NCBI RefSeq assembly: GCF_037975245.1
Contig: NC_092576.1
Span: 20,273,611 to 20,337,610 of the forward strand
Direction: 5' to 3'
DNA: 64,000 nt
DNA from: Apostichopus japonicus
Taxonomy: Eukaryota; Echinodermata; Holothuroidea; Aspidochirotida; Stichopodidae
Both the position numbers and the translations under genes were made by a program. Below, in pieces: positions 1,901-40,100 of this stretch. Position 1 is the first letter of the stretch; the number at the start of each line of letters is the position of its first letter. A model generated the notes under the pieces. It was not told where the DNA came from. It saw nothing but the letters and a program-made list of their open reading frames with translations, and did no database searches.

Positions 1901-2035
1901 TTTACTATAGTATGTGGTTCTTTCTTTTTGTATTTACCTTCAGTATACGTATTACATTTATAGAGAGGAGTCATAAAATACCTCAACAAGAAGAATAACT
2001 AACATTAAAAGTGATGTTTTTTTAAGATGATAGGA

Positions 2036-5814
<3,779 letters not shown>

Positions 5815-28100: not shown

Positions 28101-31100
28101 TCCTACTGACAGTATGAACAGTTCCTAACCTGTTTTTATGTTAATGCTTAAATACCTCTGTATACTGTCCTCACAAACTATGCTTCAAAGCACTCCTACT
28201 GACAGTATGAACAGTTCCTAATCTTTATCTGATTCTGATGCTTATACCTCTGTATACTGTCTTCGGAAACTATGCTTCAAAGCACTCCTACTGACAGTAT
28301 GAACAGTTCCTATAACCTCTATCCAGGAGAAACAAGATATTCATACTGTCAGTGAAAAGGTTTTCAAGCATGACGTTTAAGTACAGATTATCAAAAATGT
28401 TCCCAAATTGAATGATTTAGCTCTCCTTGAGGGGATCAAGTATTATAATTTAGAGTGATGTTGCTTTATCTTTGCGGTATAATTTCTCAATTGTCAATGA
28501 TTGTCAATGAATTTGTCAGTTAACTACATGGCAGTGAGTTCATATTTGGCAGTACTGTATGTAACAATAGTATAACGTGCATTGCCAATGGAATTCCCTT
28601 GATATGCATAGAGAAATACTGTACATATGAAGCAGGTTATAAGCAGTAGTAAAGAGGTGTGATTGCTTGCCAAGTCATTCTCAGGTATGAATTATCTATG
28701 ATAGAATTAATGGTACATAGTGATTGGTTGTCGAGACACTCTCATGTAGGCATTACCTACAATATCATAGAATTAATTGTACATAATAGTGATTGGTTGC
28801 CGAGTCATTCTCAGGTATGCATTACCTATGATAGAATTAATGGTACATAGTGATTGGTTGCCGAGTCATTCTCAGGTATGCATTGCCTATGATAGAATTA
28901 ATGGTACATAATAGTGATTGGTTGCCGAGTCATTCTCAGGTATCCATTACCTATGATAGAATTAATGGTACATAGTGATTGGTTGCCGAGTCATTCTCAG
29001 GTATGCATTACCTATGATAGAATTAATGGTACATAATAGTGATTGGTGGCCGAGTCATTCTCAGGTATGCATTGCCTATGATAGAATTAATTGTACATAA
29101 TAGTAATTGGTTGCCGAGTCATTTTCAGACCTGTATGCATTAACTATGATAGAATCAATCATACTTAGTGCTTGGTTGCCAAGACACCCTCATGTATGCA
29201 TTACCTACAGTATCATAGAATTAATTGTACATAATTGTGATTGGTTGCGGAGTCATTCTCAGGTATCCATTATCTATGATAGAGTCAATCAATACATAAT
29301 AGTGATTGGTTGCCCAGTTGTTCTTAGGTGTGCATTACCCTAGATCATAAATGTTAATGATACATAATAGTGATCGGTTGCCGAGTCATTCTCAGGTATC
29401 CATTACCTATGATAGAGTCAGTCAATACATAATAGTTATTGGTTGCCGAGTCAGTGTTTGTCAAGTGTGCATTGCCTATGAGTTGATTGAATAGCAATAT
29501 AGTACAGTAACTACACTGCCAACATTTACAATACTCATAAAATGCACCAATTTGTGCATTTTGATGTTAATTATAACCTGATAAGAAAGAAGAATGTGCA
29601 GTCTACTGTTTCTGTATAACATTAGCAGTATATTCTAGTAATTCAATAATTTAGTTTTGACTTTGACATATATAATGATATCTTTATTTATTTTTATATT
29701 TTTTTAAATTTTGTTATTGTAGTCTGGAGATCCGATCTATACAGTGTATGAGACCCTATCTCTGGGATTACTTGGCTTGCCTACAGCTCTCCTCAGTAAA
29801 GAATGCACAGATACCAACCCAGCAGGTAAACTAGAACTGAACTCTGAAAGACACCATTAGCATTTGTTACTTTAGATCCCAGGCATCATGAACAAAACTG
29901 TCATCTTAAAGGCATTGAAGACTCGCCCCAAACTGTGTGCATCCATCTGAAAAAGTAAACTTTCCGTTGCTTGCAAGTGATGTTTTGTTCATGTCGCTAC
30001 AAAAGGCAGACAGTACAGTAATGAAACATGATACCTTGTTATCTTTAGCTGGAACTGAGATGCCCATCGCTGCATGGTTTGTATACTGTGCTGTGGGTAT
30101 TGACCGCAGCTGTATGTACTGACTGTACACTAGCGTCTAATTACCGTTGGTAGCAAGCTGTGTGTGTGTATTTTCTGGGATTGATGGTGGTGTCTAACAC
30201 TTCTGTTACACCACATTCGAAACTAGGTCAGATTACCGGCATTAGATGTTTCTTTTTGCGTGAGTCCTAAGACCCTTTAATAAGAATTTGTTTTTTCAAA
30301 GACATTCATAGTTATAATGTACTAAATCCCAACACGATTTTGGCTCATGACATCATAACTACTGTATATCTCTTGTCGATGAACTAAGATATTCTATACG
30401 GTCATTTGAATTGTGTTTGACTCTTCCTCCAGTATTTTAGGGAAAAAAAGAAAGTTTGACAAATATGCTAATGAGCTTGCTTTGTATCAAAGTGCATTTA
30501 TTTATTTATTTTTGGTACTTTTTTTTATTTCTGATTTTTATCAGCCTATTTGCATGATCAGACCTCATCTTGTGTTAGAAGTATCAGTGATCTCCCTGCG
30601 GAGTGTGAGAGCCTCCCGTCTCTGTCAGCGAGAACCTACACTGAAGGATTCAAAGTGATATCGGTAAGTAACCAGCATCAGTCACAACATCATAGGAACA
30701 GAAGCAATCAATAGCCATAGTAGTGTAGTACATTGTCTAACTGTATAGCTTGATGTCTATGAATCCATGGCATTGAGATTGAGTACACTATCAGTAGTAC
30801 CTCAACACTAGGTAGCTGTTTTTACCATTCTCACAGACACAACTAAATACATCATACATCTCTGTCATATGTAAGTATATCTAACAGGAGTGAGCGACTC
30901 ATTGTTGATAAGCATTTGAGGGTTGGAGATCTACGTTGTCGATTGTGAACACTATCAGTAGTACCTCAACACTAGGTAGCTGTTGTTACCATTCTCACAG
31001 ACACAACTAAATACATCATATCTCTGTCATATGTAGGTATATCTAACAGGAGTGAGCTACTCATTGTTGATAAGCATTTGAGGATTGGAGAACTACATTG

Positions 31101-34100
31101 TCGATTGTGAACACTATCAGTAGTACCTCAACACTAGGTAGCTGTTGTTACCATTCTCACAGACACAACTGAATACATCATATCTCTGTCATATGTAGGT
31201 ATATCTAACAGGAATGAGCTACTCATTGTTGATAAGCATTTGAGGATTGGAGAACTACATTGTCGATTGTGAACACTATCAGTAGTACCTCAATACTAGG
31301 TAGCTGTTGTTACCATTCTCACAGACACAACTGAATACATCATATCTCTGTCATATGTACGTATATCTAACAGGAGTGAGCTACTCATTATTGATAAGCA
31401 TATGAGGATTGGAGAACTACATTGTCGATTGTGAACACTATCAGTAGTACCTCAACACTAGGTAGCTGTTGTTACCATTCTCACAGACACAAATAAAAAT
31501 ACATCATATCTGTGTCATATGTAGGTATATCTAACAGGAGTGAGCGACTCAGTGTTGATAAGCATATGAGGATTGGAGAACTACATGGTCGATTGTGAAC
31601 ACTATCAGTAGTACCTCAACACTAGGTAGCTGTTGTTACCATTCTCACAGACACAACTAAATACATCATATCTCTGACATACGTAGGTATATCTAACAGG
31701 AGTGAGCTACTCATTATTGATAAGCATATGAGGATTGGAGAACTACATGGTCGATTGTGAACACTATCAGTAGTACCTCAACACTAGGTAGCTGTTGTTA
31801 CCATTCTCACAGACACAATTATCATATCTGTGTCATATGTAGGTATATCTAACAGGAGTGAGCGACTCATTATTGATAAGCATATGAAGATTGGAGAACT
31901 ACATTGTCGATTGTGAACACTATCAGTAGTACCTCAACACTAGGTAGCTGTTGTTACCATTCTCACAGACACAATTATCATATCTCTGTCATATGTAGGT
32001 ATATCTAACAGGAGTGAGCGACTCATTATTGATAAGCATATGAAGATTGGAGAACTACATTGTCGATTGTGAACACTATCAGTAGTACCTCAACACTAGG
32101 TAGCTGTTGTTACCATTCTCACAGACACAATTATCATATCTCTGTCATATGTAGGTATATCTAACAGGAGTGAGCGACTCATTATTGATAAGCATATGAA
32201 GATTGGAGAACTACATTGTCGATTGTGAACACTATCAGTAGTACCTCAACACTAGGTAGCTGTTGTTACCATTCTCACAGACACAATTATCATATCTCTG
32301 TCATATGTAGGTATATCTAACAGGAGTGAGCGACTCATTATTGATAAGCATATGAAGATTACTACATTGTCGATTGTGTACACTATCAGTAGTACCTCAA
32401 CACTAGGTAGCTGTTGTTACCATTCTCACAGCCACAATTATCATATCTCTGTCATATGTAGGTATATCTAACAGAAGTGAGTGACTATTCATTGATAAGC
32501 ATATGAGGATTGGTGAACTACATGGTCGATTGTGAACACTATCAGTAGTACCTCAACACTAGGTAGCTGTTGTTACCATTCTCACAGACACAACTTAATA
32601 CATCATACATCTCTGTCATATGTAGGTATATCTAACAGGAGTGAGCTACTCAGTGTTGATAAGCATATGAGGATTGGAGAACTACATTGTCGATTGTGAA
32701 CACTATCAGTAGTACCTCAACACTAGGTAGCTGTTGTTACCATTCTCACAGACACAATTATCATATCTCTGTCATATGTAGGTATATCTAACAGGAGTGA
32801 GCGACTCATTATTGATAAGCATATGAAGATTGGAGAACTACATTGTCGATTGTGAACACTATCAGTAGTACCTCAACACTAGGTAGCTGTTGTTACCATT
32901 CTCACAGACACAATTATCATATCTCTGTCATATGTAGGTATATCTAACAGGAGTGAGCTACTCATTGTTGATAAGCATTTGAGGATTGGAGAACTACATT
33001 GTCGATTGTGAACACTATCAGTAGTACCTCAACACTAGGTAGCTGTTGTTACCATTCTCACAGACACAACTGAATACATCATATCTCTGTCATATGTAGG
33101 TATATCTAACAGGAGTGAGCTACTCATTGTTGATAAGCATTTGAGGATTGGAGAACTACATTGTCGATTGTGAACACTATCAGTAGTACCTCAACACTAG
33201 GTAGCTGTTGTTACCATTCTCACAGACACAACTGAATACATCATATCTCTGTCATATGTACGTATATCTAACAGGAGTGAGCTACTCATTATTGATAAGC
33301 ATATGAGGATTGGAGAACTACATTGTCGATTGTGAACACTATCAGTAGTACCTCAACACTAGGTAGCTGTTGTTACCATTCTCACAGACACAAATAAAAA
33401 TACATCATATCTGTGTCATATGTAGGTATATCTAACAGGAGTGAGCGACTCAGTGTTGATAAGCATATGAGGATTGGAGAACTACATGGTCGATTGTGAA
33501 CACTATCAGTAGTACCTCAACACTAGGTAGCTGTTGTTACCATTCTCACAGACACAACTAAATACATCATATCTCTGACATACGTAGGTATATCTAACAG
33601 GAGTGAGCTACTCATTATTGATAAGCATATGAGGATTGGAGAACTACATGGTCGATTGTGAACACTATCAGTAGTACCTCAACACTAGGTAGCTGTTGTT
33701 ACCATTCTCACAGACACAATTATCATATCTCTGTCATATGTAGGTATATCTAACAGGAGTGAGCGACTCATTATTGATAAGCATATGAAGATTGGAGAAC
33801 TACATTGTCGATTGTGAACACTATCAGTAGTACCTCAACACTAGGTAGCTGTTGTTACCATTCTCACAGACACAATTATCATATCTCTGTCATATGTAGG
33901 TATATCTAACAGGAGTGAGCTACTCATTATTGATAAGCATATGAGGATTGGAGAACTACATGGTCGATTGTGAACACTATCAGTAGTACCTCAACACTAG
34001 GTAGCTGTTGTTACCATTCTCACAGACACAATTATCATATCTCTGTCATATGTAGGTATATCTAACAGGAGTGAGCGACTCATTATTGATAAGCATATGA

Positions 34101-37100
34101 AGATTGGAGAACTACATTGTCGATTGTGAACACTATCAGTAGTACCTCAACACTAGGTAGCTGTTGTTACCATTCTCACAGACACAATTATCATATCTCT
34201 GTCATATGTAGGTATATCTAACAGGAGTGAGCGACTCATTATTGATAAGCATATGAAGATTGGAGAACTACATTGTCGATTGTGAACACTATCAGTAGTA
34301 CCTCAACACTAGGTAGCTGTTGTTACCATTCTCACAGACACAATTATCATATCTCTGTCATATGTAGGTATATCTAACAGGAGTGAGCGACTCATTATTG
34401 ATAAGCATATGAAGATTACTACATTGTCGATTGTGTACACTATCAGTAGTACCTCAACACTAGGTAGCTGTTGTTACCATTCTCACAGCCACAATTATCA
34501 TATCTCTGTCATATGTAGGTATATCTAACAGAAGTGAGTGACTATTCATTGATAAGCATATGAGGATTGGTGAACTACATGGTCGATTGTGAACACTATC
34601 AGTAGTACCTCAACACTAGGTAGCTGTTGTTACCATTCTCACAGACACAACATAATACATCATACATCTCTGTCATATGTAGGTATATCTAACAGGAGTG
34701 AGCTACTCAGTGTTGATAAGCATATGAGGATTGGAGAACTACATTGTCGATTGTGAACACTATCAGTAGTACCTCAACACTAGGTAGCTGTTGTTACCAT
34801 TCTCACAGACACAATTATCATATCTCTGTCATATGTAGGTATATCTAACAGGAGTGAGCGACTCATTATTGATAAGCATATGAAGATTGGAGAACTACAT
34901 TGTCGATTGTGAACACTATCAGTAGTACCTCAACACTAGGTAGCTGTTGTTACCATTCTCACAGACACAATTATCATATCTCTGTCATATGTAGGTATAT
35001 CTAACAGGAGTGAGCTACTCATTGTTGATAAGCATTTGAGGATTGGAGAACTACATTGTCGATTGTGAACACTATCAGTAGTACCTCAACACTAGGTAGC
35101 TGTTGTTACCATTCTCACAGACACAACTGAATACATCATATCTCTGTCATATGTAGGTATATCTAACAGGAATGAGCTACTCATTGTTGATAAGCATTTG
35201 AGGATTGGAGAACTACATTGTCGATTGTGAACACTATCAGTAGTACCTCAACACTAGGTAGCTGTTGTTACCATTCTCACAGACACAACTGAATACATCA
35301 TATCTCTGTCATATGTACGTATATCTAACAGGAGTGAGCTACTCATTATTGATAAGCATATGAGGATTGGAGAACTACATTGTCGATTGTGAACACTATC
35401 AGTAGTACCTCAACACTAGGTAGCTGTTGTTACCATTCTCACAGACACAAATAAAAATACATCATATCTGTGTCATATGTAGGTATATCTAACAGGAGTG
35501 AGCGACTCAGTGTTGATAAGCATATGAGGATTGGAGAACTACATGGTCGATTGTGAACACTATCAGTAGTACCTCAACACTAGGTAGCTGTTGTTACCAT
35601 TCTCACAGACACAACTAAATACATCATATCTCTGACATACGTAGGTATATCTAACAGGAGTGAGCTACTCATTATTGATAAGCATATGAGGATTGGAGAA
35701 CTACATGGTCGATTGTGAACACTATCAGTAGTACCTCAACACTAGGTAGCTGTTGTTACCATTCTCACAGACACAATTATCATATCTGTGTCATATGTAG
35801 GTATATCTAACAGGAGTGAGCGACTCATTATTGATAAGCATATGAAGATTGGAGAACTACATTGTCGATTGTGAACACTATCAGTAGTACCTCAACACTA
35901 GGTAGCTGTTGTTACCATTCTCACAGACACAATTATCATATCTCTGTCATATGTAGGTATATCTAACAGGAGTGAGCGACTCATTATTGATAAGCATATG
36001 AAGATTGGAGAACTACATTGTCGATTGTGAACACTATCAGTAGTACCTCAACACTAGGTAGCTGTTGTTACCATTCTCACAGACACAATTATCATATCTC
36101 TGTCATATGTAGGTATATCTAACAGGAGTGAGCGACTCATTATTGATAAGCATATGAAGATTGGAGAACTACATTGTCGATTGTGAACACTATCAGTAGT
36201 ACCTCAACACTAGGTAGCTGTTGTTACCATTCTCACAGACACAATTATCATATCTCTGTCATATGTATATCTAACAGGAGTGAGCGACTCATTATTGATA
36301 AGCATATGAAGATTACTACATTGTCGATTGTGTACACTATCAGTAGTACCTCAACACTAGGTAGCTGTTGTTACCATTCTCACAGCCACAATTTTCATAT
36401 CTCTGTCATATGTAGGTATATCTAACAGAAGTGAGTGACTATTCATTGATAAGCATATGAGGATTGGTGAACTACATTGTCGATTGTGAACACTATCAGT
36501 AGTACCTCAACACTAGGTAGCTGTTGTTACCATTCTCACAGACACAACTTAATACATCATACATCTCTGTCATATGTAGGTATATCTAACAGGAGTGAGC
36601 TACTCAGTGTTGATAAGCATATGAGGATTGGAGAACTACATTGTCGATTGTGAACACTATCAGTAGTACCTCAACACTAGGTAGCTGTTGTTACCATTCT
36701 CACAGACACAATTATCATATCTCTGTCATATGTAGGTATATCTAACAGGAGTGAGCGACTCATTATTGATAAGCATATGAAGATTGGAGAACTACATTGT
36801 CGATTGTGAACACTATCAGTAGTACCTCAACACTAGGTAGCTGTTGTTACCATTCTCACAGACACAATTATCATATCTCTGTCATATGTAGGTATATCTA
36901 ACAGGAGTGAGCTACTCATTGTTGATAAGCATTTGAGGATTGGAGAACTACATTGTCGATTGTGAACACTATCAGTAGTACCTCAACACTAGGTAGCTGT
37001 TGTTACCATTCTCACAGACACAACTGAATACATCATATCTCTGTCATATGTAGGTATATCTAACAGGAGTGAGCTACTCATTGTTGATAAGCATTTGAGG

Positions 37101-40100
37101 ATTGGAGAACTACATTGTCGATTGTGAACACTATCAGTAGTACTGTACCTCAACACTAGGTAGCTGTTGTTACCATTCTCACAGACACAACTGAATACAT
37201 CATATCTCTGTCATATGTACGTATATCTAACAGGAGTGAGCTACTCATTATTGATAAGCATATGAGGATTGGAGAACTACATTGTCGATTGTGAACACTA
37301 TCAGTAGTACCTCAACACTAGGTAGCTGTTGTTACCATTCTCACAGACACAAATAAAAATACATCATATCTGTGTCATATGTAGGTATATCTAACAGGAG
37401 TGAGCGACTCATGATTGATAAGCATTTGAAGATTGGAGAACTACATTGTCTTATCACAGCATTCTACCTATTCGGTGCTGGTCCTATTAGAGTGTGAATT
37501 AATAACTTGCTAAATTAATCGTTAATATTCAACATGCAGACTTTTGAAGTGGTACTGTTTAACAAAGATAATATGTATCATTATATAATATAAATATATT
37601 AATAAAATAAAGATCAACACACCAGACAAATTCCACTTGACGACTGGTTTCGTCTCTTTGGGACTCAGGCGAAGGTGGGGATCGAACCCCGGTCACAGAC
37701 CAAAGTTTGTAACACTCGACCACAATGATTCTACTTGTGTGCACCCCTGGTGCTTTGAATCTGACAATTTACACAGCATTACCACTTTTTTATAGGCAAG
37801 CCAAGCCGTAAATAAGAAATGTATGTGTACAATTATAACACTTGGGTAATACGCCCTCATTGACAGTTATACAAAGCCATTCACACACCAGTAGAATCAC
37901 TGTGGTCGAGTGGTACGGACTTCGGTCTGTGTCACAAAGGTCTGGGGTAGGATTCCTACCTTGACCTGATGAGTCCCAAATGGACAAAACCGGTCGTGAA
38001 GTGGAGTTTTTCTGGTGTGTTGATCTTTATTAATTTAATATATATGTCTTACAACCTGCTGCACATACCACATTCACTTGCTACACAAGTTCTCATTCAG
38101 GAGTAATAAAAAACCACTGTAATAAAACATACTACTACACTGTTAAATTACATATTGCTACTTATCAGACCTGACTGTAATTGTGGGTGATGTACCTTAG
38201 GTAACTGCTTTTGTCCAGAATATTATAATCATATACCATCAGGTAGGAAGCTGTGTCTTAGCTGTTACCAGGTGATCTATGTATTTGTTAGCAAGTAAAA
38301 ACATAACTCTCTTGTCATCTTTCGTAGACACCAAAATTTCTTCAAGAGAATCCACCTCCTGAACCAAGACTTGTGAATGTAACAACTGCAGTCCCTGCAA
38401 GTACAGCAACACCGACCCCAACACCTGAAGCAACACCGTCAAACACCACAAGTAACACCACCAGCAACACCACCACTGTAGTAGGCATTAGCACCGTCAT
38501 TCCCACCAGCTTCATTCCTAGTGAAGATTCTCTTTACTATGAACACCCTGAACTGGTTACTGTTGATGTCTTACAACCGCTTTGTCGTGGCAGCCTTGGT
38601 GTCGACATCAACTGTGACTTCACTGTTGGGTCGATTCCATTTCCATCTTACAACGTCTCAACTCAAACATGTGAGAATGTTGTTCTTGAGGTAAGTCAAC
38701 ATGTCTTCTAAGTGACTGATTGTTATATGCTGGTGTAATTACTCATCTCAAACATGTGAGAATGTTGTTCTTGAGGTAAGCCAACATGTCTTCTAAGTGA
38801 CTGATTGTTATCTGCTGCTGTAATTACTCATCTCAAACATGTGAGAATGTTGTTCTTGAGGTAAGTTAACATGTCTTCTAAGTGACTGATTGTTTTCTGC
38901 TGCTGTAATTACTCATCTCAAACATGTGAGAATGTTGTTCTTGAGGTGAGCCAACATGTCTTCTAAGTGACTGATTGTTATCTGCTGCTGTAATTACTCA
39001 TCTCAGACATTTGAGAATGTTGTTCTTGAGGTAAGTCAACATGTCTTCTAAGTGACTGATTGTTATCTGCTGCTGTTATGACTCATCTCAAACATGTGAG
39101 AATGTTGATCTTGAGATAAGCCAACATGTCTTCTAAGTGACTGATTGTTATCTGCTGCTGTAATAACTCATCTCAAACATGTGAGAATGTTGTTCTTGAG
39201 GTAAGTCAACATGTCTTCTAAGTGACTGATTGTTATCTGCTGCTGTTATTACTCATCTCAAACATGTGAGAATGTTGTTCTTGAGGTAAGCCAACATGTC
39301 TTCTTCTAAGTGACTGATTGTTATCTGCAGCTGTAATTACTCATCTCAAACATGTGAGAATGTTGTTCTTGAGGTAAGCCAACATGTCTTCTAAGTGACT
39401 GATTGTTATCTGCTGCTGTAATTACTCATCTCAAACATGTGAGAATGTTGTTCTTGAGGTAAGCCAACATGTCTTCTAAGTGACTGATTGTTATCTGCTG
39501 CTGTAATTATTCATCTCAAACATTTGAGAATGTTGTTCTTGAGGTAAGCCAACATGTCTTCTAAGTGACTGATTGTTATCTGCTGCTGTAATTATTCATC
39601 TCAAACATTTGAGAATGTTGTTCTTGAGGTAAGCCAACATGTCTTCTAAGTGACTGATTGTTATCTGTTGCGGTATTTACTCATCTCAGACATGTGAGAA
39701 TGTTGTTCTTGAGGTAAGCCAACATGTCTTCTAAGTGATGTTATCTGATGCTGTAATTATGTACCAACCTCATGATTTCATTCACTGACATTTCTCTCCA
39801 AGTGACTTTCATCATTTGTTCCACATATTGTTTTTTTCAGGTGGCATATGTACTTACCCACAATGCAACAGATGGCATTATGGCTGCCTCAGTTCAAGTT
39901 ATTCTTGGTAGCATAGAAGCAAATCATCTCCCTTTACTGCAGACCTTTCAGGCATCTTTTGAAAAGGTAATGTGTCTTTGCTCCACTGTGTCACATAAGT
40001 GAAGCAACTACCACATAATTAACTTTATTAACTGGCTATGGTAGAGCTCATTAATCATAGGAATCAGGTTCTATCCTGTTTATTAATATTTTAGGCTAAA

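What the first reader, a model, noticed from the sequence alone, without database searches (positions are those of the whole stretch)
37595..38040. A tRNA-headed SINE that carries a hammerhead ribozyme fold
Two inverted SINE copies share a Pol III-type A/B-box head, directly followed by CTGATGA, a helix II GTCC/GGAC, GAAAC, a palindromic minimal helix III and complementary helix I strands. Each copy has a different single core lesion (three core bases deleted in one, G12 changed in the other), so their common ancestor probably had a complete core. The closest known parallel is the schistosome Sm-alpha SINE-like element with a hammerhead; in a deuterostome this could be an independent ribozyme-SINE or a retrozyme relative. 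Seen: motifs and pairing. Known: the hammerhead consensus. Inferred: ancestral activity.
Basis: partly seen in the sequence, partly recalled or inferred. Interest (0 to 1): 0.82.

Follow-up and report, generated by a model that had tools for sequence, protein, structure and literature searches.

The report
Ribozyme-bearing SINE inserted Penelope-style
Hundreds of short mobile DNA copies in a marine animal's genome join a tRNA-type promoter to a hammerhead self-cutting RNA motif, and they sit in the genome with the tell-tale ends left by Penelope-like retrotransposons, which suggests that they borrow that machinery to spread.

Summary
Window copy B matches Rfam type I hammerhead (27.4 bits); copy A has a core deletion (12.1 bits). 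The window's genome has 220 copies with exact intact core, helix II and palindromic helix III (reversed control 0), and 237 with the B box joined to CTGATGAGTCC. The two 'inverted copies' are most likely arms of one insertion. The element is a 341-bp unit: Pol III-type A/B boxes, hammerhead, T run, tail, body, often in head-to-tail multimers with inverted 5' pieces. Of 74 insertions examined, 57 end at one of two sites, about 50 or 72-88 nt after the predicted cut, and 58 lie beside (TA)n. This matches the published Penelope-like (PLE) signature and a PLE family of the same genome, ending 61 and 90 nt from CGAAA against mainly 61 and 89-98 here. A two-unit transcript is predicted to fold as a double hammerhead. 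Best reading: a retrozyme-like SINE with Pol III boxes, mobilised by PLE reverse transcriptase. Cleavage, circularisation, transcription and PLE dependence are inferred. Host mitochondrial code 9 fits an echinoderm.

The parts
37594..37741 (-). Left arm: unit positions 160 to 1 (tail, hammerhead A, Pol III-type head)
   Evidence: BLAST to unit L142:671-1011, 80% (L133:1500-1647); a weak extension reaches 37560
37633..37671 (-). Hammerhead A, broken: three core bases deleted, helix II down to three pairs, mismatch in helix I
   Evidence: RF00163 12.1 bits, E 4.7; alignments
37679..37688 (-). B box of arm A (GGTTCGATCC)
   Evidence: read from sequence
37712..37722 (-). A box of arm A (TGGTCGAGTGT)
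   Evidence: read from sequence
37742..37829 (-). Inverted body piece (unit 179-283; the BLAST match itself is 37725-37829 and overlaps the arm)
   Evidence: L133:1631-1735
37826..37879 (+). Plus-strand body piece (unit 273-326); the strand switch of the composite insertion lies at about 37826-37829
   Evidence: L133:1732-1785
37884..38075 (+). Right arm: unit 1 to about 192 (head, hammerhead B, T5, tail)
   Evidence: BLAST 87% to 38066; local alignment to 38075 = unit 192
37903..37913 (+). A box TGGTCGAGTGG
   Evidence: sequence
37946..37956 (+). B box, decayed (GGTAGGATTCC; most genomic copies GGTTCGATTCC); its 3' half is also the outer helix I strand of the hammerhead
   Evidence: sequence
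37952..38007 (+). Hammerhead B with extended helix I (AUUCC-UAC-CUUGAC / GUGAAG-U-GGAGU), helix II GUCC/GGAC, G12 changed to A at 37986, palindromic helix III ACCGGU 37989-37994, predicted cut 37995/37996
   Evidence: RF00163 27.4 bits at 37960-38001; alignment
38007..38011 (+). T5, a possible Pol III terminator directly after the hammerhead
   Evidence: window copy B has T5; among 59 distinct copies that match a fixed flank pattern, 59 have a run of T4 or longer (51 of T5 or longer)

Best explanation
A family of non-coding retroelements built from a 341-bp unit: Pol III-type A and B boxes, then directly a type I hammerhead ribozyme with an extended helix I (UAC/U internal loop) and a loopless palindromic helix III (ACCGGU), then a T run, a tail and a body. 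Helix III cannot close within one copy, so cleavage should need two copies; head-to-tail units supply them on one RNA as a double hammerhead. Cleavage at C112/G113 would give unit-length RNA that a host ligase could circularise (inferred). A Penelope-like reverse transcriptase takes the RNA (circle or uncut multimer) and starts copying at one of two sites downstream of the hammerhead, on AT-rich nicked DNA and from both strands, leaving preferred ends in (TA)n, variable 5' ends, tandem units and inverted 5' pieces. The window feature is one old insertion of this kind, with both ribozymes decayed. Shown: unit, copies, ends, (TA)n, arm-age correlation, PLEs with the same geometry in the same genome. 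Inferred: transcription, cleavage, circle, trans-mobilisation.
For: Intact cores 220 vs 0 in the reversed control. RF00163 in the own genome: 59 matches listed, 50 over the cut-off (74 of 66,307 first-look candidates scored); 0 of 14 control genomes. Of 74 insertions: 3' ends 36 at unit 158-166, 21 at 184-200, 17 elsewhere; (TA)n within 60 bp in 58 of 74 vs 56 of 2257 background stretches; more than one unit in 32 of 74; inverted 5' piece in 29 of 74, outer end at the same two sites in 17 of 29; arm divergence r = 0.84 over 25 pairs. After merging near-duplicates: 56 of 72, 56 of 72, 17 of 28, r = 0.81 over 24; of these, not selected on the core: 28 of 38, 28 of 38, 11 of 17. PLEs with RT plus C-terminal GIY-YIG and frames of 910 and 835 aa. 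PLE family 1: of 43 match pieces, 16 end at CGAAA+61 (two of them at +60), 26 run on to about +90 and into (TA)n, 1 ends elsewhere; SINE ends are mostly unit 162 (+61), 190 (+89) and 199 (+98). In vitro a PLE starts RT internally at two sites one 30-40 bp 'tail' apart, prefers AT-rich DNA and cuts and extends both strands (PMC11167929, main-text section read). Tandem L142:733-1144 folds into the double hammerhead, z -2.5, 0 of 100 shuffles as stable.
Against: No RNA or activity data. In the anole PLE, hammerhead mutants still insert in vitro, so cleavage may be unnecessary. The SINE tail does not resemble the PLE tail beyond chance (global score reached by 244 of 2000 shuffles and by 37 of 829 other PLE-locus stretches). 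17 of 74 insertions end elsewhere and 12 of 29 inverted pieces have other outer ends. A T run right after the hammerhead would stop Pol III before the rest of the unit. Head not recognised as tRNA. RNAalifold does not predict the full hammerhead from the single-copy alignment. Covariation is slight: 3 of 15 pairs with a double change (1 of 500 shuffles as high), but structures slid by 1-3 columns also show 2-3 such pairs. In A1 only 18 of 43 copies had the exact intact core and 13 of those 18 were predicted to form the double hammerhead; helix III variants that break the palindrome also gave stable dimers by energy.
Confidence: 0.7

Rival explanations
1. An uncut PLE passenger: PLE reverse transcriptase copies intact multimer transcripts, and the hammerhead fold is kept mainly as the RNA signal that the PLE protein recognises; cleavage and circles play no part.
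For: 73 of 74 arrays run through the cleavage site and ends do not pile up there; anole PLE hammerhead mutants insert normally in vitro, and no reads began or ended at the cut site; PLE family 1 in this genome keeps the spacing though its CTGANGA is not recognisable in the six copies read.
Against: The catalytic core is intact in 42 of 56 copies not selected for it, against 32.9 expected from divergence elsewhere (random 11-position sets reach this in 50 of 2000 draws), a modest excess. In a single monomer insertion the body lies upstream of the promoter, which a circle or multimer explains and a Pol III transcript of a monomer does not. One insertion, seen at two near-identical loci (L171, L172), ends exactly at C112.
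Confidence: 0.3
2. A classical LINE-dependent tRNA SINE that merely carries a hammerhead; the (TA)n is its microsatellite tail.
For: A/B boxes at normal spacing, 5' truncations, (TA)n after the 3' end; another tRNA-like SINE next to (TA)n is seen in L145, L205 and L221 (and, beside this element, in L174).
Against: Two preferred internal 3' ends, head-to-tail multimers, and inverted 5' pieces whose outer ends are often the same two sites are not what LINE insertion is known to leave (recalled); (TA)n is also within 60 bp of the 5' end in 30 of 74. No LINE of this genome was compared.
Confidence: 0.1
3. A satellite or foldback repeat multiplied at the DNA level (unequal exchange, helitron or MITE), ends being recombination in (TA)n.
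For: Tandem and palindromic arrangements; a few clusters of close copies (C1:12.10-12.12 Mb; C9:34.9-35.6 Mb).
Against: Copies are dispersed over many contigs with variable 5' ends and preferred 3' ends; the end spacings equal those of a coding PLE in the same genome.
Confidence: 0.07
4. Chance hammerhead look-alike.
For: Copy B alone is under Rfam's gathering score.
Against: 220 intact copies and 0 in the reversed control; 50 of 59 listed matches over the cut-off.
Confidence: 0.01

Closest known systems
Schistosome Sm-alpha / Sj-alpha SINE-like elements with a hammerhead
   Same: tRNA-related SINE plus type I hammerhead, high copy number (PMC2770079, passages read; PMC8490949, passages read)
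   Different: Another host; here two preferred ends tied to the hammerhead, inverted 5' pieces, (TA)n targets and PLE-matching spacing. No sequence comparison was made: the Sm-alpha sequence was not at hand, and whether Sm-alpha shows these features was not tested.
Metazoan non-LTR retrozymes (Cervera and de la Pena 2020)
   Same: Small AT-rich tandem repeats with type I hammerheads; dimer-dependent cleavage in amphibians; PLEs proposed as helpers; unit length similar (animal repeats given as about 150-300 bp in the review, constructs Ax353 and Mg353 in the paper) (PMC7229834 and PMC7761336, passages read)
   Different: Retrozymes are described as seeming to lack promoters; this unit has A and B boxes and a T run. 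circRNA not shown here.
Penelope-like elements and their minimal hammerheads
   Same: Hammerhead, tandem copies, internal RT start at two sites one 'tail' apart, AT-rich targets, both strands extended (PMC11167929); same end spacing in PLE family 1 of this genome
   Different: No ORF in the unit; Pol III boxes instead; complete CTGATGA core with extended helix I, while the PLE family 1 copies read show no recognisable CTGANGA.
Amniote hammerhead HH9 (RF02275)
   Same: Outscores RF00163 at several copies (up to 47 bits, L223), matching in the UAC-containing helix I and loop II
   Different: Below its gathering score of 52; HH9 as a conserved amniote intron ribozyme is recalled, and no kinship is claimed.
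MetaSINEs (66-bp Meta-domain SINE superfamily)
   Same: Lead from recall only: tRNA head followed by a conserved central domain
   Different: Not tested: the paper is not held.

Membership tests
Type I hammerhead ribozyme | Conserved core CUGANGA...GAAA...UH | tested here: met
   220 exact intact genomic copies; broken in both window copies
Type I hammerhead ribozyme | Helices I, II, III | tested here: met
   Helix I and II cells 95.2% paired in 43 copies; helix III only as a palindrome between two copies
Type I hammerhead ribozyme | Score over Rfam gathering cut-off | tested here: met
   Genomic copies up to 46.7 bits, 50 of 59 listed over 34; the window copy alone is not (27.4)
Type I hammerhead ribozyme | Self-cleavage | not testable with these tools
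   needs in vitro transcription
tRNA-derived SINE | Internal Pol III promoter (A and B boxes) | tested here: met
   As sequence motifs only: B box joined to the hammerhead in 237 copies; A and B box columns conserved in 80 rows. Promoter activity not tested.
tRNA-derived SINE | Head recognisably derived from a tRNA | tested here: not met
   ARAGORN finds no tRNA in the element in 20 loci (its one gene, in L221, lies outside it); RF00005 hits only other places in 9 loci
tRNA-derived SINE | 3' end shared with a partner LINE | not tested
   no LINE comparison was made; the PLE tail comparison was not significant
Metazoan retrozyme | Non-coding tandem repeats bounded by type I hammerheads | tested here: met
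   period about 341 bp, more than one unit in 32 of 74 insertions
Metazoan retrozyme | Unit-length circular RNA | not testable with these tools
   no transcriptome held
PLE-mobilised element | Two internal 3' ends one tail (30-40 bp) apart, AT-rich target | tested here: met
   57 of 74 insertions at the two sites; (TA)n beside 58 of 74; 56 and 56 of 72 after merging near-duplicates
PLE-mobilised element | PLE with the same end geometry in the genome | tested here: met
PLE-mobilised element | Tail sequence homologous to the partner PLE | tested here: not met
   global score reached by 244 of 2000 shuffles, local by 768 of 2000; one PLE family 1 copy and two family 2 copies were compared
PLE-mobilised element | Insertion by the PLE protein | not testable with these tools
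   needs purified protein and RNA

The most novel reading that the evidence does not exclude
A SINE that depends on a Penelope-like element instead of a LINE: a Pol III promoter fused to a hammerhead-centred recognition module that tells the PLE reverse transcriptase where to start, with the ribozyme turning tandem transcripts into circular templates. The hammerhead would then be the shared address label that lets PLEs, retrozymes and such SINEs use one machinery.
Probability: 0.5. Interest if true: 0.82.

Novelty: new variant of a known kind. Interest (0 to 1): 0.7.

Why it matters
Which enzyme spreads animal retrozymes, and what the minimal hammerhead does in Penelope-like elements, are left open in the papers of which I read passages or sections. 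Here a non-coding element with its own Pol III-type boxes shows the PLE insertion signature in 57 of 74 copies examined, with end spacing measured from the hammerhead equal to that of a coding PLE in the same genome. That turns both questions into direct tests: purified PLE protein plus a 341-nt RNA, with and without cleavage. It also offers a rule for finding other PLE-dependent SINEs: two ends about 50 and 80 nt after a hammerhead, in (TA)n.

Tried and rejected
A recalled bivalve repeat motif was looked for in papers; none of the 29 papers listed held it. The MetaSINE, PLE-hammerhead and small-variant papers are not held. Homology of the SINE tail to the PLE tail looked tempting by eye and failed the shuffle test. 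Helix III variation as proof of selection: 24 copies whose first middle base is not C split into 11 TG, 11 AG, 1 GC and 1 TA (variants at the second base were not sought), so no clear preference for palindromes. Lower divergence in the hammerhead (52 of 1530) than in head plus tail (288 of 4484) is confounded by CpG and AT-rich columns, and positions 1-19 are equally low (30 of 962). Model R1 was built with a mis-registered structure and not used. A first dimer test had an index error and was redone; the helix II pairs were counted one base out and were recounted. The list of 74 insertions had only exact duplicates removed; merging two near-duplicate pairs by flank gives 72, a test that sees 250 bp of flank and may miss larger segmental copies. 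Rejected or ranked low: chance motif; ordinary LINE SINE; DNA-level satellite (see rivals).

Full report
WHAT WAS CHECKED. Copy B on the plus strand matches the Rfam type I hammerhead with 27.4 bits (E 1.6e-4 for 601 bases against all families; E 0.017 for the window), under the gathering score of 34 (one search lists nothing). Copy A on the minus strand lacks three core bases and scores 12.1 bits. The copies are 77% identical over 157 columns, inverted. Both also carry helix I lesions, and A keeps three helix II pairs.

THE GENOME. The window lies in a 671.6-Mb assembly of 35 contigs. Its mitochondrial COX1 reads AAA as Asn, ATA as Ile and AGA as Ser at conserved sites, i.e. code 9; the protein looks echinoderm (recalled; flatworms share the code). 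A search with the window stretch gave 1182 first-look candidates, of which 40 were scored. The exact intact core with helix II and ACCGGTC occurs 109 times forward and 111 reverse, 0 in the reversed control. GGTTCGATTCCTAC-N6-CTGATGAGTCC occurs 120 + 117 times, control 0. RF00163 run on the genome lists 59 matches, 50 over the cut-off, with 0 of 14 control genomes ringing; ten of the 59 were fetched and all ten match the unit by BLAST.

THE UNIT. Genomic copies show a 341-bp unit (reference L142:671-1011): A box at 20-30, B box at 63-73, CTGATGA at 83-89, cut after 112, T run from 124. Outer helix I uses the 3' half of the B box (AUUCC with GGAAU), followed by a UAC/U internal loop and inner helix I CUUCGC/GUGAAG. 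Over 43 distinct copies from loci not fetched by the core pattern (both window arms included), 95.2% of pair cells hold and 3 of 15 pairs have a double change (1 of 500 shuffles as high); sliding the structure by 1-3 columns drops pairing to 35-47% but leaves 2-3 double-change pairs, so covariation is weak support. Helix III is the palindrome ACCGGU without a loop. The tandem transcript L142:733-1144 folds as a double hammerhead with both cores open (z -2.5, 0 of 100 shuffles as stable); 13 of 18 copies with the exact intact core, out of 43 rows, do so as two-strand dimers, though palindrome-breaking variants also form stable dimers by energy. The core is intact in 42 of 56 copies not selected for it, against 32.9 expected (50 of 2000 random position sets reach 42). 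A T run of at least 4 follows the hammerhead in 59 of 59 copies that match a fixed flank pattern.

THE INSERTIONS. From the fetched loci I took 74 insertions (39 not selected on the core); other loci were dropped as exact duplicates or because the array reached a locus end. 3' ends: 36 at unit 158-166, 21 at 184-200, 17 elsewhere. (TA)n of four or more repeats lies within 60 bp of an end in 58 of 74, against 56 of 2257 background stretches from the same loci and 10 of 1066 in the window. 32 of 74 hold more than one unit on the plus strand. 29 of 74 begin with an inverted piece, whose outer end is at one of the same two sites in 17 and elsewhere in 12. Divergence of inverted and direct arms correlates (r = 0.84, 25 pairs). 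For the 39 not selected on the core, 29 of 39 end at the two sites and 11 of 17 inverted outer ends do. Merging two near-duplicate pairs leaves 72 insertions: 56 of 72 at the two sites, 56 of 72 beside (TA)n, 17 of 28 inverted outer ends, r = 0.81 over 24 pairs; the commonest ends are unit 162 (28), 199 (9) and 190 (4). Ends do not pile up at the cut site; one insertion, at two near-identical loci (L171, L172), ends exactly at C112. The window composite has the same design: minus 160-1, minus 283-179, plus 273-326, plus 1-192. I therefore read the two 'copies' as arms of one insertion.

THE LIKELY MACHINERY. For an anole PLE, PMC11167929 (main-text section read) reports RT starting inside the RNA, 85-92 nt after the hammerhead cut by its coordinates (cut at +26, start at +111 to +118), two starts one 30-40 bp tail apart, AT-rich cleavage, and both strands cut and extended. 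This genome holds PLEs: GIY-YIG matches 37 places (150 of 626 candidates scored), and two frames of 910 and 835 aa carry RVT_1 plus C-terminal GIY-YIG. Of 16 GIY-YIG regions fetched, 12 have a (TA)n run downstream and 4 do not. In PLE family 1 the distance from CGAAA to (TA)n is 54-61 in three copies and 90-92 in three; over 43 match pieces, 16 end at CGAAA+61 (two of them at +60), 26 run on to about +90 and into (TA)n, and 1 ends elsewhere. The SINE's commonest ends are +61, +89 and +98. The tail sequences themselves do not match beyond chance. PLE family 1 shows GAAAC-GTCGTG but no recognisable CTGANGA in the six copies read. Family 2 shows a minimal hammerhead-like CTGAAGA...GCTCGAAA in some copies and ends at another spacing: its first (TA)n lies 133 after CGAAA in four of the six regions, 54 in one, and one has no CGAAA; Rfam does not match it in L231.

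MECHANISM AND DOUBT. The simplest joint reading is a PLE-dependent, retrozyme-like SINE. Whether cleavage is needed is open: the anole hammerhead is dispensable in vitro. Pol III would be expected to stop at the T run, so full templates need read-through, a longer transcript or a circle. Nothing here shows RNA or activity.

LITERATURE. Searches over the held library gave, in the rows listed and the passages read, no paper that I recognised as describing a hammerhead SINE in an echinoderm or a SINE attributed to PLE mobilisation; lists were capped, and the key MetaSINE and PLE-hammerhead papers are not held. Sm-alpha already joins a tRNA-related SINE to a hammerhead, so that join is not new. 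A review says that retrozymes seem to lack promoters and proposes PLEs as helpers of the animal ones (passages); a promoter in a plant retrozyme has since been reported (abstracts in the listing).

Noticed in passing
L121, L125, L127, L128 (viral contigs): Type I-like hammerhead cores sit next to or between tRNA-like sequences in phage-like contigs (tRNA reading by eye).
   Followed up: no
L221:430-504; L145:391-460 minus; L174; L205: A second tRNA-like SINE without a hammerhead, ending ...TTTCAATTATATA or similar, mostly beside (TA)n, found near the hammerhead element; possibly another passenger of the same machinery.
   Followed up: partly
L171 and L172: One insertion (two near-identical loci) ends exactly at the predicted hammerhead cut site, followed by a TATATATC repeat: a possible insertion of cleaved RNA.
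   Followed up: partly
window 30777-37450: A 156-bp satellite of about 42 copies stops just left of the element.
   Followed up: no
window 38657-39759: Thirteen copies of an 85-bp repeat that appears to include an exon end with its GTAAG splice donor (splice reading by eye).
   Followed up: no
L231, L232 and L233-L246: Two PLE families in this genome with long open frames; one keeps a minimal hammerhead-like motif, the other shows no CTGANGA in the copies read but has the same end spacing as the SINE.
   Followed up: partly
window 2025-4184: A 2.16-kb AGAT microsatellite, 270 repeats of the 8-base unit AGATAGAT at 99% matches.
   Followed up: no
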